From a virus, in the IMG/VR virus record IMGVR_UViG_3300037584_003378, positions 1 through 20,076 of that record: a stretch of DNA of 20,076 bases. One strand, given 5' to 3'. Of the stretch, positions 10,336 through 18,867 are shown one piece after another (positions within the stretch are counted from its first letter, which is position 1; each line of letters opens with the position of its first letter). The notes beneath the pieces were generated by a model. The model was not told where the DNA came from. It worked only from the letters and a program-made list of their open reading frames with translations, and searched no databases. A program made the translations under genes and the position numbers.

Positions 10336-10364
10336 TTGACATTACATTTTAATTTTATTATAAT
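10336..10364 (+). promoter_or_regulatory. Sigma70-like promoter (TTGACA-17-TATAAT)
   Basis: -35 TTGACA 10336-10341, a 17-base spacer, -10 TATAAT 10359-10364. It is followed by TAAATTGT and the shared leader to ATG 10392, 56 bases from the -35. It drives the plus genes from 10392. Confidence 0.92.
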
Positions 10365-10391
10365 TAAATTGTTATCAAACAAACTAAACCA

Positions 10392-10520
10392 ATGACAAAT
10401 TTCTTTATGGTTATGTGCGCGACAGGAATCTTTTATTTGGGATTCGATGGGGCGTTAACCGATATGACCCGCAACGATTGTGCAGCGGGTATTCAAGCGG
10501 CTTGCGAGGTGTTGCGATGA
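10392..10520 (+). CDS. Small hydrophobic-N-terminus protein, 42 aa
   Basis: Read by hand: ATG 10392 to TGA 10520. The product MTNFFMVMCATGIFYLGFDG... has a hydrophobic first 18 residues (possible signal or membrane segment) and three cysteines. The ATG follows the shared leader (CTAAACCAATG) at the standard distance from the promoter, and the stop overlaps the next ATG (ATGA). This placement makes it very likely translated. The alternative long frame through this region starts without a ribosome site. Function unknown. Confidence 0.72.
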   Translation: MTNFFMVMCATGIFYLGFDGALTDMTRNDCAAGIQAACEVLR

Positions 10521-11507: not shown

Positions 11508-11798
11508 ATGAAACGATATAGATTTTCAAGCGGGGATGAAGAAACATCGCGCAGGGCTGAACAACAGTTTTTACGCATAACTGAGAATATGACCGATGAA
11601 CAACGTGACGCTGTTCTTGATTGTTTGATAAAAATGCAGAAACAATTATTTTTTCAAGAGCCGTGGTTGATGAAAAAGTTTTCAGGAAAAGAACAGGCGC
11701 ATATCTTGGCGCAATATACAAAAGAAGAACAAATGATAATGCTTGCGAGGTTTGATCTTGAATTACAACATTGGAAAGATAAAAAAAGAAATAGTTGA
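11508..11798 (+). CDS. Helical hypothetical protein, 96 aa
   Basis: The start is set at ATG 11508, right after the preceding stop. The longer reading from 11463 overlaps the previous gene and is rejected. The product MKRYRFSSGDEETSRRAEQQ... is mostly helical, with 'MTDEQRDAVLDCLIKMQKQL' and 'YTKEEQMIMLARFDLELQHW'. No motif identifies its role. The TGA stop falls inside the -35 box of the next promoter. Last gene of its operon. Confidence 0.78.
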   Translation: MKRYRFSSGDEETSRRAEQQFLRITENMTDEQRDAVLDCLIKMQKQLFFQEPWLMKKFSGKEQAHILAQYTKEEQMIMLARFDLELQHWKDKKRNS

Positions 11799-11823
11799 CA
11801 ATATTATTTAATTATAATATAAT
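11795..11823 (+). promoter_or_regulatory. Sigma70-like promoter (TTGACA-17-TATAAT)
   Basis: -35 TTGACA 11795-11800 overlaps the stop codon of the previous gene (11796-11798). A 17-base spacer precedes the -10 TATAAT at 11818-11823. The initial transcript reads TAACTTGTAAGCAAACC, and ATG 11851 lies 56 bases from the -35. Confidence 0.92.
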
Positions 11824-11850
11824 TAACTTGTAAGCAAACCAATCAAACAA

Positions 11851-12108
11851 ATGCAAATCGAAACAGACTTAACAAAAAAACAAACTCATTACTTGATTGA
11901 TCTTCTAAATAATGATTATCAAAAAATGAGAAGAACAAAAGAAGAGCTATTAAAAATAGACCTTGATTTTATAAATGAAGAATGTGGCAAAACAAAAATG
12001 ACAATGATTGAAAAATTAGAAAAAGCTATGGAAGAAAACGAAACCATATGCCACAAATTAGACGATCATTTAACAGACATCAGAAGGGGGCGTAAATTAA
12101 ATGGATAG
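11851..12108 (+). CDS. Helical hypothetical protein, 85 aa
   Basis: ATG 11851 follows the shared leader CAATCAAACAAATG without Shine-Dalgarno. The product MQIETDLTKKQTHYLIDLLN... is almost entirely helical and rich in Lys/Glu (coiled-coil-like from residue 10 to 75). No family recognised. The stop overlaps the next ATG by eight bases. First gene of the operon leading to the Mom-like gene. Confidence 0.78.
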   Translation: MQIETDLTKKQTHYLIDLLNNDYQKMRRTKEELLKIDLDFINEECGKTKMTMIEKLEKAMEENETICHKLDDHLTDIRRGRKLNG

Positions 12109-12244: not shown

Positions 12245-12464
12245 AACGCCTTCTTTACTTTCGCCTTGTGGCTCTTATCAGGTTGACTTTTTCCCAATAA
12301 AAGGTCGATCTGATCTTTTTCTAAGATGTGGAGTTTTTGAAGGTCTTATTGAATTTCAAGAATGTGTATCGCACGTTGAAATGTTTCGAGAAGTAGAAAG
12401 CAAAAGATTTAGAAAATTTAGAACAATAAAGCAAAATAAAATCCCGCAAGAAATAATTATATGA
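12237..12464 (+). CDS. Hypothetical protein, 75 aa
   Basis: The start is ATG 12237, overlapping the previous stop by eight bases; an in-frame ATG at 12225 is possible. The product MIETPSLLSPCGSYQVDFFP... alternates short beta strands ('DLFLRCGVFEGLIEFQ') with a basic helical tail. No family recognised. It ends in an ATGA overlap with the Mom-like gene, so the two are probably expressed together. Confidence 0.7.
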   Translation: MIETPSLLSPCGSYQVDFFPIKGRSDLFLRCGVFEGLIEFQECVSHVEMFREVESKRFRKFRTIKQNKIPQEIII

Positions 12465-13162
12465 AAGATAAATATTCAATAAAGCCTGTTTTTAGTACAG
12501 AATGTTATGAATGGTTTTTAAAGAAACACTATGCGCGAAGATTGCCGAATATTAATTGCGCTTTTGGGTTGTACGATAATTTAAATCTGTTGCAAGGTGT
12601 TTGCAGCTTTGGTAAACCTATGAGCCATACGCTAGTATCTGGGGCAATAAATGGGCTATATCAAGATAATTTTCTTGAACTTAATAGATTAGTTATCAAT
12701 GAAGGATTAGAAAAAAATGTTCTCAGCTTTTTTGTTTCTGGTTGCTTAAATAGATTGCCGAAACCGTTGGTTGTTGTTTCATATGCTGATACATCGCAAG
12801 GGCATCACGGGTTTATTTATCAGGCCACAAATTGGATTTATACAGGACTAAGCGCAAAATTTAAAGATTATGCTGTAAAAGGTCTTGAACATATGCACCA
12901 CAGTTCGATTGAAGACAGCGTTGGCCGCTATGACGAAAACAAAAACATTAATAAACATGAGTTATTAAGAAAAAAATACGGCGATAGGTTGTACATGAAA
13001 GAACGTCCGCGAAAACATAGATATTTTTATTTTCTAGGCAATAAAAAAGAAAAAGCGCTTATGAATGAAAACTTGCAATATAAAGTCGAACCATACCCAA
13101 AAGGCGACAACAAGAGATATGACGCAAGTTATAAGCCGAGCGTTCAGGGCGTGTTGTTTTGA
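12461..13162 (+). CDS. Mom-like adenine modification protein (GNAT-fold family)
   Basis: A 233-residue protein. The motif set is 'CAFGLY' (33-38), 'GVCSFGKP' (46-53), 'FLELNRLVINEGL' (71-83), 'VVVSYADTSQGHHGFIYQAT' (104-123) continuing N-W-I-Y-T-G, and 'ERPRKHRYFYFLG' (181-193). This matches, as I remember it, phage proteins annotated as Mom family, related to phage Mu Mom, which converts adenine in phage DNA to N6-carbamoylmethyladenine and blocks many restriction enzymes. Mom proteins have a GNAT-like fold. Length is close to Mu Mom (about 240 residues). It is the last gene of its operon, start-coupled by ATGA, and its last 19 bases overlap a convergent gene. Family call is strong; the exact modification is inferred. 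Confidence 0.87.
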   Translation: MKDKYSIKPVFSTECYEWFLKKHYARRLPNINCAFGLYDNLNLLQGVCSFGKPMSHTLVSGAINGLYQDNFLELNRLVINEGLEKNVLSFFVSGCLNRLPKPLVVVSYADTSQGHHGFIYQATNWIYTGLSAKFKDYAVKGLEHMHHSSIEDSVGRYDENKNINKHELLRKKYGDRLYMKERPRKHRYFYFLGNKKEKALMNENLQYKVEPYPKGDNKRYDASYKPSVQGVLF

Positions 13163-13430: not shown

Positions 13431-13459
13431 TTGACATACTTAATTAATTCTATTATAAT
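13431..13459 (+). promoter_or_regulatory. Sigma70-like promoter (TTGACA-17-TATAAT)
   Basis: -35 TTGACA 13431-13436, a 17-base spacer, -10 TATAAT 13454-13459. It is followed by AGGAATGTAAGCAAAAC and ATG 13488, 57 bases from the -35. It heads the replication/regulation operon. Confidence 0.93.
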
Positions 13460-13487
13460 AGGAATGTAAGCAAAACAAATCAAACCA

Positions 13488-13730
13488 ATGAACACTTTCT
13501 TCAATCGCTACTTCAACGAAAAACAACTTGACAATCAGGTTTACGAAATCGCTGCTCCTAACGGAACAATGAATTTGATTGAAACTGATATGGTCATCGC
13601 CAAGATCAAGACAACTCAAGGCGAAGAAGCTAAAAAGATCGAAGCGATCATTAGACAGATTGATTGCTTAAACGGCGACATTCATCATTTCTTGAGACAT
13701 CTTGCTCAAGCAATGGCAATTGATTTCTAA
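13488..13730 (+). CDS. Hypothetical protein, 80 aa
   Basis: ATG 13488 follows the shared leader ATCAAACCAATG. The product MNTFFNRYFNEKQLDNQVYE... has a short N-terminal region, then a helical C-terminal half ('DMVIAKIKTTQGEEAKKIEA' onward). No family recognised. Its stop overlaps the Shine-Dalgarno of the next gene (TAAGGAGG). First gene of the long plus operon. Confidence 0.78.
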   Translation: MNTFFNRYFNEKQLDNQVYEIAAPNGTMNLIETDMVIAKIKTTQGEEAKKIEAIIRQIDCLNGDIHHFLRHLAQAMAIDF

Positions 13731-16060: not shown

Positions 16061-16680
16061 AAAAATTACTTGAACCTTTACCTATTGCGAGGATAGAAAA
16101 AACCCACAAATACATTTGGGAACCGACAGGCGAACAGCTTGCATTTTCAACAACTCAAGTTTGTAATACAAAAACGCCTGAACAATTAGAAAACATTGAA
16201 CGCTACCGCCACAAATGGCAACCACGCGGAGAAACAGCGCATTATGCTTTGCAACAGCGGATGCTTGGCAACGACAAAATTGAAATGGGCGACTATGAAG
16301 ATTGGATCAAACCTTTGATGGATTTGGAATTGTGGGAAGATTTCGAGCCGTGGGCGGTTGAATATATGCTTTGCGATCTTGAAAAATCTGTCGGCGGGCA
16401 ACTTGATCTTTTGGGCTACGACAACAAATCGCAAAAACTTATGTTGATTGATTTAAAAACACAATCGCAAAAGTACGCCAAGCCTTATTCAACAGATGCG
16501 CAGATGGGAAGCTATCTTGAAGCGCTTGCGGAACATCATAAAATTATTCCTGATGTATGCAAAACAATCTGGGCTAGACCGAATAGATGTATTGTTGGCG
16601 AAGATCAACACACGATTGATTGCGCATATGCGTGGTCGCAGGCGTGGAAAAGATTTGATTCTGAACAGGGGGGATTTTGA
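16057..16680 (+). CDS. PD-(D/E)XK nuclease (RecB/Cas4-like exonuclease)
   Basis: The start is set at ATG 16057, coupled to the previous stop; the 41 extra N-terminal residues of the longest ORF are out-of-frame copy of the wHTH gene. The 207-residue product has 'RGETAHYALQQ' (57-67, motif like RGT..H), 'VEYML' (101-105), 'GGQLDLLG' (113-120, Asp117), 'LMLIDLKTQ' (128-136, Asp132 and Lys134) and 'QMGSYLEAL' (149-157). This order is the PD-(D/E)XK signature of RecB/Cas4-like nucleases. In phages such enzymes resect DNA ends for single-strand annealing. Annealing and SSB-like genes follow downstream. Metal-dependent exonuclease activity is inferred. Confidence 0.87.
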   Translation: MKKLLEPLPIARIEKTHKYIWEPTGEQLAFSTTQVCNTKTPEQLENIERYRHKWQPRGETAHYALQQRMLGNDKIEMGDYEDWIKPLMDLELWEDFEPWAVEYMLCDLEKSVGGQLDLLGYDNKSQKLMLIDLKTQSQKYAKPYSTDAQMGSYLEALAEHHKIIPDVCKTIWARPNRCIVGEDQHTIDCAYAWSQAWKRFDSEQGGF

Positions 16681-17135
16681 AAGAACTTGAATTTCGTGTT
16701 GTAGGTTTACCCGCGCCGCAGGGTTCAAAAACTTTGACAAGATACGGCGGTTTGATGGAATCAAGCAAAAGGGTTAAGCCTTGGCGTCAGGATATTATCC
16801 ACGCGGCACTTGAAGCGTTTGCAGGCAATCCGTTCAATGAACCCGTGCAAGTTTCTATTGAATTTATAATGCCGCGCCCTAAGAGCCATTTTGGAACAGG
16901 TAAAAATGCAGAAATATTAAAAAATAATGCGCCTTTTTTCTGCACTAGCAAAACAACAGGGGATGTTGATAAATTAACAAGAAGTACTCTTGATGCCCTA
17001 TCTGTTACGTCTGGCGGAACTGTTCTTGCAGATGATTCTCTTGTTGTTTGTTTGCAGGCTTTGAAACGCTATGCAAAACGATTTGAACATATCGGGGCAA
17101 ATATAAATATAAAAACTTTTGACAAACCCGAATAA
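16677..17135 (+). CDS. rusA: RusA-like Holliday junction resolvase
   Basis: A 152-residue protein starting at TTG 16677, whose stop-overlap (TTGA) couples it to the nuclease; the purine-rich AGGGGGG lies close upstream. Motifs are 'GLPAPQGSKTLTRYGG' (10-25), 'VKPWRQDI' (33-40), 'TGDVDKLTRSTLDALS' (94-109, Asp96 and Asp98) and 'VLADDSLVV' (116-124, Asp119/120). These are the RusA family pattern (PQGSK..., W, D-V-D-K-L...LDAL, DD). RusA dimers cut four-way junctions, here helping to resolve replication and recombination intermediates before packaging. The gene's 3' end contains the -35 of the next promoter. Confidence 0.92.
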   Translation: MKELEFRVVGLPAPQGSKTLTRYGGLMESSKRVKPWRQDIIHAALEAFAGNPFNEPVQVSIEFIMPRPKSHFGTGKNAEILKNNAPFFCTSKTTGDVDKLTRSTLDALSVTSGGTVLADDSLVVCLQALKRYAKRFEHIGANINIKTFDKPE

Positions 17136-17146
17136 ATTGGTAGACT
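17119..17146 (+). promoter_or_regulatory. Promoter with extended -10, overlapping end of rusA
   Basis: -35 TTGACA 17119-17124 lies within the last codons of the rusA-like gene. A 16-base spacer precedes -10 TAGACT at 17141-17146, with TGG just before it (extended -10). The initial transcript, AAAGAATGTAAG, resembles those after the other promoters. It would drive the leader and genes from 17294. Confidence 0.72.
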
Positions 17147-17150
17147 AAAG

Positions 17151-17273
17151 AATGTAAGTACACCCCGAAGTTTTACGGAATTAGGTTGTCAATGCTTACA
17201 TTGAAGCAACAAGACCTTACATATCCTCTTGTTAAATCAAGATGTGAATTTCTGTAAGAGCGTCAGTTGCTTC
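17151..17273 (+). ncRNA. Structured leader RNA upstream of annealing-protein gene
   Basis: A leader of about 140 bases without an ORF. Inverted repeats visible by eye: AATGTAAG 17151-17158 / CTTACATT 17195-17202; GAAGCAAC 17203-17210 / GTTGCTTC 17266-17273; inside that, CTTACA 17216-17221 / TGTAAG 17253-17258 and TCTTG 17227-17231 / CAAGA 17238-17242. Also TCAATG-CTTA-CATTGA 17189-17204, extendable to GTTG/CAAC. TGTAAG and CTTACA each occur twice, so alternative pairings are possible. No Shine-Dalgarno precedes the ATG at 17294. A cis-regulatory role is inferred; no known riboswitch matches fully. Confidence 0.55.
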
Positions 17274-17293
17274 TTTAAAATTATTAGCGGACT

Positions 17294-17995
17294 ATGGAAA
17301 ACCAAACAAAACCAATCGAAATCCCAAATATGGGCGGCCTGATAACGACAGGCGATCTTTACAAAAAAGGGCGTTTTACATATAGCGCTTGGGCTAAAAC
17401 AGCGCAAAGAATTAGAGAAAACGCGCCAAACTGGTTTTTTTCATTAGAACCTGACCCAAACGGGCAGCTTGTTTGGATGGCTCCAAATAATACGGGTTAT
17501 TTGATGGGATGCTTTGTAAATGTAATAACAGGGGTTAAACTTCCTTTGTTTCCCTATGCAATAACAAACAATAAAAACGATGCTATAAGTTACGAAAAAA
17601 TTAGTGCAAATGATATTCAAAATTCACAACGTCGTCATTTGTGCGCCTGCGCTTGTTACTCCTTTGGCGATGCTTACGAACTTTGGGCTGATGTTGAAGT
17701 TAAAGACCTTGACCAACCAAAAGAAGAACCACCTGAAAATAACGATGTTGTAAGAACACCGACAAAACCGAATCAAGAACCTGATAAAGATTATTTAATT
17801 CCCAAACCAATCAACCCGCAAGCAAGGGATTTGATTTGCCAAGACATACGAAATTCAGGCCATCAAGAACAAATCTTGAAAGAGTTCAAGGAATATTTCA
17901 AATTAAAAGTAGACAAAGTACGTCCGCAAAATATTACATTATCTGAACACGGCAGATTTTTGCGTCAAGCTGTTGAAAAGTATAAAGATGATTAA
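17294..17995 (+). CDS. Sak3/DUF1071-like single-strand annealing protein
   Basis: A 233-residue protein. Residues 30-133 follow the layout of the DUF1071/Sak3 group of phage recombinases: 'YSAWAKTAQRIRENAP', a beta-rich part with 'MGCFVNVITGVKLPLFPYAI', then 'SANDIQNSQRRHLCACACYS' with 'FGDAYELWADVE'. This echoes the family block 'N..D.......R.L.K..A.fGlGL.l..geD'. These proteins coat single strands and pair complementary ends. A Pro/Glu linker (140-170) joins a C-terminal helical region (170-230), perhaps for SSB contact. Neighbours (exonuclease, RusA, SSB-like) support the role. Family call is by pattern from memory. Confidence 0.68.
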   Translation: MENQTKPIEIPNMGGLITTGDLYKKGRFTYSAWAKTAQRIRENAPNWFFSLEPDPNGQLVWMAPNNTGYLMGCFVNVITGVKLPLFPYAITNNKNDAISYEKISANDIQNSQRRHLCACACYSFGDAYELWADVEVKDLDQPKEEPPENNDVVRTPTKPNQEPDKDYLIPKPINPQARDLICQDIRNSGHQEQILKEFKEYFKLKVDKVRPQNITLSEHGRFLRQAVEKYKDD

Positions 17996-18793: not shown

Positions 18794-18828
18794 GGCTTAC
18801 TTTTGGGGAATTAGTAAGCCCATTTTTT
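18794..18828 (+). terminator. Intrinsic terminator, plus strand
   Basis: GGCTTACT (18794-18801) and AGTAAGCC (18813-18820) form a perfect eight-base-pair stem, followed by CA and TTTTTT. It is the first plus-strand terminator after the recombination operon; transcription would run antisense through the 91-aa gene to reach it. Confidence 0.8.
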
Positions 18829-18867
18829 GCAGAGAAGGCATCGACCACCTGACGCCTTACGCCAACC

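What the first reader, a model, noticed from the sequence alone, without database searches (positions are those of the whole stretch)
17151..17273. Folded leader with switch-like alternative pairings before the annealing-protein gene
Seen: two perfect eight-base inverted repeats (17151-17158/17195-17202 and 17203-17210/17266-17273) with nested shorter stems, and two copies each of TGTAAG and CTTACA that can pair in different combinations. The gene downstream lacks a Shine-Dalgarno. The leader starts with AATGTAAG as other phage transcripts here do. Inference: a cis-acting RNA switch or a self-regulated translation site, perhaps bound by the annealing protein itself. The parts ACGGAATTAGG and TGAAGCAAC recall glutamine-binding glnA/Downstream-peptide RNAs, but the outer stem of those RNAs is not formed.
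Basis: partly seen in the sequence, partly recalled or inferred. Interest (0 to 1): 0.72.

Follow-up and report, generated by a model that had tools for sequence, protein, structure and literature searches.

The report
Swappable folded RNAs shared by cyanophages
The folded stretch in front of this marine virus gene is built from two small folded RNAs that belong to an undescribed, constantly reshuffled pool which unrelated viruses, probably of the same ocean cyanobacteria, carry at the ends of transcripts and as separate RNA units; what they do is not yet known.

Summary
In detail: an exact two-hairpin leader lies between a sigma-70-type promoter in the end of rusA and the Sak-like annealing gene of a marine cyanosiphovirus. 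Relatives change its meaning. Both hairpins keep their pairing through compensatory base changes, so they are real RNA structures. Each is a separate module (here 'delta' and 'M4/epsilon'). Phages with 92-96% identical flanks carry quite different structured RNAs at this spot, or none. The same modules recur elsewhere: singly or in mixed tandem arrays between convergent genes of siphoviruses, in the leader of a 32%-identical annealing gene, and behind a promoter-like site in T7-like podoviruses. None reached a family threshold in Rfam 15. Of the named phage records searched, only one hit was found: a single-cell-derived virus with a different module.

The cross-pairings are 8.5 and 15.8 kcal/mol worse and are lost in relatives. 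The glnA core and outer stem are absent. The modules occur without the annealing gene, and near-identical annealing proteins have unrelated leaders or none. My best reading is a modular noncoding RNA repertoire shared by phages of picocyanobacteria. Its identity is well supported. A role as host-factor or defence decoy is inference (about 0.4); protection of mRNA ends is the main rival.

The parts
17119..17146 (+). sigma-70-type promoter, TTGACA-16 nt-TAGACT, overlapping the 3' end of rusA
   Evidence: 10 of 12 consensus matches, TG before the -10; TTGACA(A)..TAGACT kept in front of every leader type of the close relatives. Not proven by transcript mapping.
17151..17202 (+). HP1 = module 'delta': closing stem TGTAAG/CTTACA around a conserved core (CACCCCGAAGTTTTACGGAATTAGGTTGTCAA), at or next to the predicted 5' end of the transcript
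   Evidence: 5 pairs with changes on both sides in 8 relatives, 93.7% of cells paired against 24-40% when slid; model R2 finds it between convergent genes in L260, L307, L319, L322, L336, L349, L356
17203..17273 (+). HP2 = module 'M4' frame (GAAGCAAC..GAC / GTC.AGTTGCTTC) with an 'epsilon' core (CTTACATATCC-hairpin-ATGTGAATTTCTGTAAG)
   Evidence: 6 pairs with changes on both sides in 10 relatives; frame or core found in dozens of marine viral contigs at other loci
17274..17293 (+). AU-rich single-stranded spacer, TTTAAAATTATTAGCGGACT, no Shine-Dalgarno
   Evidence: sequence; kept nearly unchanged behind different HP2 modules
17294..17995 (+). Sak-like single-strand annealing protein gene
   Evidence: phrog_21418 E 4e-39, phrog_659 (Sak-like) E 2e-4; Pfam SSAP_Sak 16.2 bits, below its cut-off
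16677..17135 (+). RusA-like resolvase gene, upstream flank of the cassette site
   Evidence: phrog_140 E 3e-21

Best explanation
Shown: the leader is a two-module RNA cassette lying between a promoter and the annealing gene. Each module is a compact RNA domain with a closing stem and a conserved core, and comes from a large, reshuffled pool. Marine cyanosiphoviruses and T7-like cyanopodoviruses carry such modules (a) in 5' leaders of annealing genes, (b) singly or in mixed tandem arrays between convergent genes, some joined to a terminator, and (c) behind a promoter-like site as what looks like a separate RNA unit. Inferred: the folded RNA itself is the active product. The conserved cores are most likely heads that bind host factors, for example decoys for a defence or RNA-processing protein; the closing stems are exchangeable holders; and the recombination-gene promoter would supply early expression. 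Unrelated phages, presumably of the same hosts, would trade modules because each host population needs a different set. My probability is about 0.9 for the identity part and about 0.4 for the trans-acting decoy or counter-defence reading. No expression or binding data exist.
For: Compensatory changes: delta 5 pairs, covariation score 0.402 against 0.144 shuffled and at most 0.091 slid; M4 6 pairs, 0.155 against 0.045; alpha, the HP2 slot of L018/L027, 8 pairs and 44 cells, 0.401 against 0.193. Conserved U-G wobbles (delta 7-43 in 7 of 8, M4 18-52 in 7 of 10) favour RNA of this strand over a DNA hairpin. Cassette exchange: leader identities of 32-66% between flanks 92-96% identical; 8 of 14 close leader-bearing pairs have different leader types; the leaderless L006/L007 have 92% identical flanks. 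Shared pool: modules of at least eight site-1 leaders recur at other loci. Recurrence in leader: L353, with a 32%-identical annealing protein, carries an M4 module nested in a 16-bp outer stem. Podovirus units: L290, L296, L304, L310, L385, L391, converging on a T7-type 5'-3' exonuclease gene. Conserved cores with changing stems. No Rfam family at its threshold in any locus scanned and no relevant match in relaxed scans of three loci.
Against: No transcript, protein partner or host target is known; the host is inferred from phage relatives only. Many module sites coincide with transcript ends, which suits the plainer mRNA-end explanation. An array behind a promoter could still serve only as a terminator region. 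The -10-like site in podoviruses is by eye, with no good -35. The decoy reading rests on diversity, core conservation and sharing between phage families, not on any interaction. Pattern searches fixed part of the M4, alpha and epsilon sequences, so invariance there is partly built in, and the epsilon core alone shows only weak covariation.
Confidence: 0.5

Rival explanations
1. mRNA-end protection: modules are 5' caps and 3' barriers that shield phage mRNAs from host RNases (RNase E, RNase J, PNPase), with sequence free to vary as long as the fold is tight.
For: Many modules sit at predicted mRNA ends: the 5' end of the annealing mRNA, 3' ends between convergent genes, and 3' of the ssb gene. 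RNase E rises during P-SSP7 infection of Prochlorococcus, and phage transcripts are reported to be shielded by antisense RNA (PMC9692554).
Against: Cores such as CNAAGCUAACACUCCCUAG are kept while the stems change, which a mere barrier does not need; several distinct core types exist; modules occur behind their own promoter-like site; leaderless relatives exist.
Confidence: 0.28
2. Cis-acting regulator of the annealing gene: the two-module leader senses a ligand, protein or RNA and tunes translation or attenuation of the downstream gene.
For: Placed exactly between promoter and SD-less start, with a constant AU-rich spacer; M4 recurs in the leader of a distant annealing gene; other cyanophage 5'-UTR motifs (manA, wcaG) are riboswitch candidates (PMC2864571).
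Against: Same module families at 3' ends and in podovirus units with no annealing gene; close relatives have unrelated leaders or none; no competing fold; none of the T1-leader modules tested is followed by a terminator-strength U tract (0 of 12).
Confidence: 0.17
3. Selfish or neutral palindromic elements (REP/BIME-like): hairpins that spread between intergenic sites by recombination or a transposase and have no phage function.
For: Intergenic, stem-closed, arrayed, exchanged between loci; presence/absence variation.
Against: Compensatory evolution within modules implies selection on the fold after insertion; structure is far richer than REP; no transposase was seen beside them, though it was not searched for systematically.
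Confidence: 0.08
4. DNA-level element: hairpins extruded in single-stranded DNA act as a recombination hotspot or origin beside the annealing gene.
For: Adjacent to recombination genes; cassettes have clearly been swapped here.
Against: Conserved U-G wobbles on one strand, a promoter immediately upstream, and the same modules far from recombination genes.
Confidence: 0.04
5. glnA/Downstream-peptide-type glutamine riboswitch or a degenerate relative.
For: ACGGAATTAGG and TGAAGCAAC look-alikes; glnA RNAs are known from marine cyanobacteria (PMC2864571).
Against: No Rfam match at E 10; core not conserved; outer stem absent, its arm belonging to another module.
Confidence: 0.01

Closest known systems
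Type III toxin-antitoxin RNA arrays (ToxI, CptI) and phage pseudo-ToxI
   Same: Tandem arrays of short structured RNAs; a phage (PhiTE) is reported to use such RNA to escape ToxN by mimicry (PMC5449768).
   Different: Units differ in fold and sequence within one array, sit in closing stems, and no toxin gene was seen beside them; sequence kinship to any antitoxin RNA was not shown.
HK022 put RNA
   Same: Adjacent RNA hairpins directly downstream of a phage promoter (PMC9378689).
   Different: put is described as acting in cis on RNA polymerase against termination; these modules also occur at 3' ends, some fused to terminators, and vary extremely between close relatives.
glnA and Downstream-peptide RNAs (RF01739, RF01704)
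   Same: Marine cyanobacterial leaders; short look-alike strings.
   Different: No Rfam hit; core and outer stem not conserved.
manA, wcaG, PhotoRC-II cyanophage motifs
   Same: Structured RNAs of marine cyanophages found in metagenomes (PMC2864571).
   Different: Those are motifs in 5' UTRs of metabolic or photosynthetic genes; no Rfam match of our loci at threshold.
REP/BIME palindromic intergenic repeats
   Same: Stem-closed intergenic elements, arrayed, often at 3' ends (own knowledge).
   Different: Complex conserved cores with covariation, several unrelated core types, use as 5' leader and separate unit.

Membership tests
glnA / Downstream-peptide (RF01739, RF01704) | covariance-model match | tested here: not met
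   no hit at gathering or at E up to 10 on 17100-17330
glnA / Downstream-peptide (RF01739, RF01704) | conserved ACGGAAGUAGG core and closing outer stem | tested here: not met
   core varies freely in relatives of the module; the GAAGCAAC arm pairs with 17266-17273, not with a 5' partner. Motif recalled from memory.
Riboswitch / conformational switch | two competing, conserved pairings | tested here: not met
   alternative pairings at probability 0.0 and 8.5/15.8 kcal/mol worse; absent in L014, L018, L030, L031
Riboswitch / conformational switch | ligand binding | not testable with these tools
   needs in-line probing
Annealing-protein autoregulatory operator | operator conserved with the protein | tested here: not met
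   flanks 92-96% identical with unrelated or no leader; modules in loci with no annealing gene next to them
Intrinsic terminator / attenuator | GC stem followed by U tract | tested here: not met
   0 of 12 site-1 T1 modules and 26 of 100 modules elsewhere have at least 6 T in the next 9 nt; none predicted at the leader. T2 and T3 leaders end in longer T runs.
Type III antitoxin RNA array | tandem pseudoknotted repeats | tested here: inconclusive
   tandem modules shown; a CUC/GAG pseudoknot in alpha pairs in 93% of cells but shows no covariation
Type III antitoxin RNA array | adjacent endoribonuclease toxin gene | not tested
   none recognised among ORFs at the sites viewed; no toxin family scan was run on them
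REP/BIME element | simple palindrome with GTAG-type head mobilised by a RAYT transposase | not tested
   palindrome complexity argues against it; no systematic transposase search
Any Rfam 15 family | score at or above the curated threshold | tested here: not met
   0 hits in the window, 20 site-1 loci and 14 further module loci

The most novel reading that the evidence does not exclude
Marine cyanophages of at least two virion types share a traded library of small trans-acting RNA domains. They are assembled like cassettes into arrays and leaders, each core inhibits or decoys a different host defence or RNA-processing factor, and the RNA content of a phage helps set which host strains it can exploit.
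Probability: 0.3. Interest if true: 0.93.

Novelty: categorically new. Interest (0 to 1): 0.76.

Why it matters
Phage accessory repertoires are usually counted in proteins and tRNAs. This is a pool of at least eight exchangeable structured RNA types, at defined loci in uncultured marine cyanophages, missed by Rfam and nearly absent from the named phage records searched. It offers concrete, testable RNAs whose hyperdiversity suggests selection by the host, and it warns that a 'regulatory leader' can be one docking site of a wider RNA system rather than a switch for the gene behind it.

Tried and rejected
Rfam at gathering and relaxed thresholds: nothing relevant. DNA similarity of the window locus, M4, alpha, T3 and one mixed array (L384) to named phages: none, apart from chance hits to Vibrio capsid and Klebsiella topoisomerase genes. 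A second array (L203) hit Marine virus AG-345-A17 only. Switch by cross-pairing: rejected. Leader peptide: the window has a 21-codon ATG ORF (MLTLKQQDLTYPLVKSRCEFL), but it is missing or different in the other leader types. Attenuator: the T1 tail TTTAAAATTATT is too weak. 'Every module is a terminator': only 26 of 100 have a U-rich tail. First structure drawn for the epsilon alignment was out of register and was redone. MFE z-scores are uninformative for T3, T5 and L018 leaders (z +0.4 to -1.6).

Full report
Setting. The window is an IMG/VR virus record of 20,076 bases. Its terminase is 61-63% identical to those of cyanophages KBS-S-2A, S-H1 and MED4-184, and the annealing protein is 29-42% identical to cyanophage proteins, so it is a siphovirus-like phage of marine picocyanobacteria. 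The leader lies between a RusA-like gene (16677-17135) and a Sak-like annealing gene (17294-17995), behind TTGACA-16-TAGACT. The predicted transcript starts at about 17151.

Observation. The leader folds as two adjacent hairpins, HP1 17151-17202 and HP2 17203-17273, better than most shuffles (z -2.5 for the whole leader). HP1 pairing has probability above 0.99 and HP2 P3 pairing 0.90-0.98, while the proposed cross-pairings have probability 0.

Relatives at the same site. The annealing protein fetched 47 viral loci and the promoter string 40. In the close clade the promoter is kept but what follows is not: T0, no leader (23-nt UTR); T1, HP1 + HP2 with different HP1 (AATGTAAG/CTTACATT, GTTAG/CTAAC, GTCAG/CTGAC) and at least seven different HP2 interiors inside GAAGC...GCTTC; T2, one short hairpin; T3, about 150 nt; T4; T5. 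Leader identity is 32-66% where flanks are 92-96% identical, and 8 of 14 such leader-bearing pairs differ in type. L006/L007 lack the leader with flanks 92% identical to the window's. HP1 of the window is that of L018 while its HP2 is that of L014, so modules reassort. More distant relatives (RusA about 51-69% identical) have an intergenic gap of about 50 nt or less, which suggests that the leader was gained in this clade.

Second site. A search of leader modules against all loci found them on the other strand between two convergent genes, at a place that is itself hypervariable: 0-3 tandem modules, sometimes ending in a T run that overlaps the opposing stop codon, or a plain terminator hairpin. 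Modules of at least eight site-1 leaders have relatives there: HP1 (delta) in L260, L307, L336, L356; HP2 (M4/epsilon) in L031, L037, L307, L384 and others; the L017, L010, L031 and L018/L027 HP2 types; and T3, T4 and T5. A third context is 3' of the ssb gene (L365 and others).

Beyond this clade. Pattern scans found the M4 3' arm in 69, the alpha core in 49 and the epsilon core in 17 viral contigs; some M4 matches are chance strings without the module. L353, whose annealing protein is only 32% identical, has an M4 module with a different P1 and an epsilon-like hairpin in the leader of that gene, enclosed by a 16-bp stem. In T7-like podoviruses (L290, L296, L304, L310, L311, L327, L385, L391) modules lie in a unit that converges on a 5'-3' exonuclease gene (Pfam PF02739); several show a TATATTG promoter-like string before the modules and a terminator after them. 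The related P-SCSP2 and MedDCM-OCT-S08-C159 have the site without modules. Among named records only Marine virus AG-345-A17 gave a hit, a gamma-type module between convergent genes.

Are the folds real? Named structures were counted on alignments. Delta (8 sequences): 93.7% of cells paired (slid versions at most 40%), 5 pairs changed on both sides, including one pair seen as C-G, G-C and U-A. M4 (10 sequences): 96.2% paired, 6 pairs. Alpha (20 sequences): 95.5% paired, 8 pairs and 44 cells. Epsilon alone: one clear compensatory pair in the inner hairpin, weak overall. Relatedness inflates such scores, and part of the sequences was fixed by the search patterns; the slid controls, and the exchange of whole closing stems around constant cores, are the stronger evidence. 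U-G pairs conserved on one strand favour RNA.

Known families. Rfam 15 gives no hit at threshold for the window or 34 related loci, and relaxed scans of the leader, L038 and L003 give nothing credible. Papers searched describe other cyanophage motifs, glnA-type RNAs, type III antitoxin arrays and put RNA, none with this organisation. The library is open-access only, so a description elsewhere cannot be excluded.

Mechanism. Shown: folded, module-built, exchanged, multi-context RNA elements. Inferred: they act as RNA products. Diversity of cores, conservation of each core while stems change, arrays that mix types, sharing between siphoviruses and podoviruses, and placement behind a recombination-gene promoter fit host-directed RNAs, such as decoys, best. 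Placement at mRNA ends fits protection from host RNases nearly as well; in Prochlorococcus RNase E rises during phage infection and phage RNAs are reported to be shielded by antisense RNA (PMC9692554). Cis control of the annealing gene is possible but does not explain the other contexts. The annealing protein as specific binder, the glutamine RNA and the two-state switch are not supported.

Limits. No expression data; host genomes were not searched; the contigs are mostly fragments; module families were defined by hand from partial pattern searches, so family borders and counts are provisional.

Noticed in passing
window 10336-10395, 11797-11853, 13431-13488: Three promoters (TTGACA..TATAAT-like) with a recurring unstructured A/C-rich UTR such as TGTAAGCAAAACAAATCAAACCAATG; perhaps a common early promoter/UTR of this phage.
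   Followed up: partly
window 12461-13162: Mom-like DNA modification protein (phrog_1384, E 3e-52), suggesting modified phage DNA.
   Followed up: no
window 18796-18831: GGCTTACTTTTGGGGAATTAGTAAGCCCATTTTTTG, a terminator-like hairpin whose loop recalls the GGAATTAG of HP1.
   Followed up: no
L003 2691-2836, L384, L391: T3 module: a long RNA with a very conserved core (GCCAACCTCTCTCTGATGCGGAC .. AGGCAACT .. GGAACCCTTC) and changing outer stem (GGCCAGA/TCTGGCC, AGATCGGA/TCCGATCT); possibly pseudoknotted, since MFE folding does not explain it.
   Followed up: partly
L337, L344, L346, L350, L365, L369, L372: Alpha core enclosed in a longer double-stem RNA (GGGGCAT..ACAAAAAGCC / TTTTTTGT..GACCCC), in L365 directly 3' of the ssb stop codon, some followed by a T run.
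   Followed up: partly
L381 (P-SCSP2), L382 (MedDCM-OCT-S08-C159), L290, L304: In T7-like cyanophages, next to the exonuclease gene: a conserved GCAAGGAGTGGTTACCTTGC-type hairpin and a terminator whose loop carries GTGGTTCC, opposite to the exonuclease gene.
   Followed up: partly
L353 3250-3440: Modules nested like dolls: an epsilon-like hairpin and an M4 module inside one 16-bp stem in an annealing-gene leader.
   Followed up: partly
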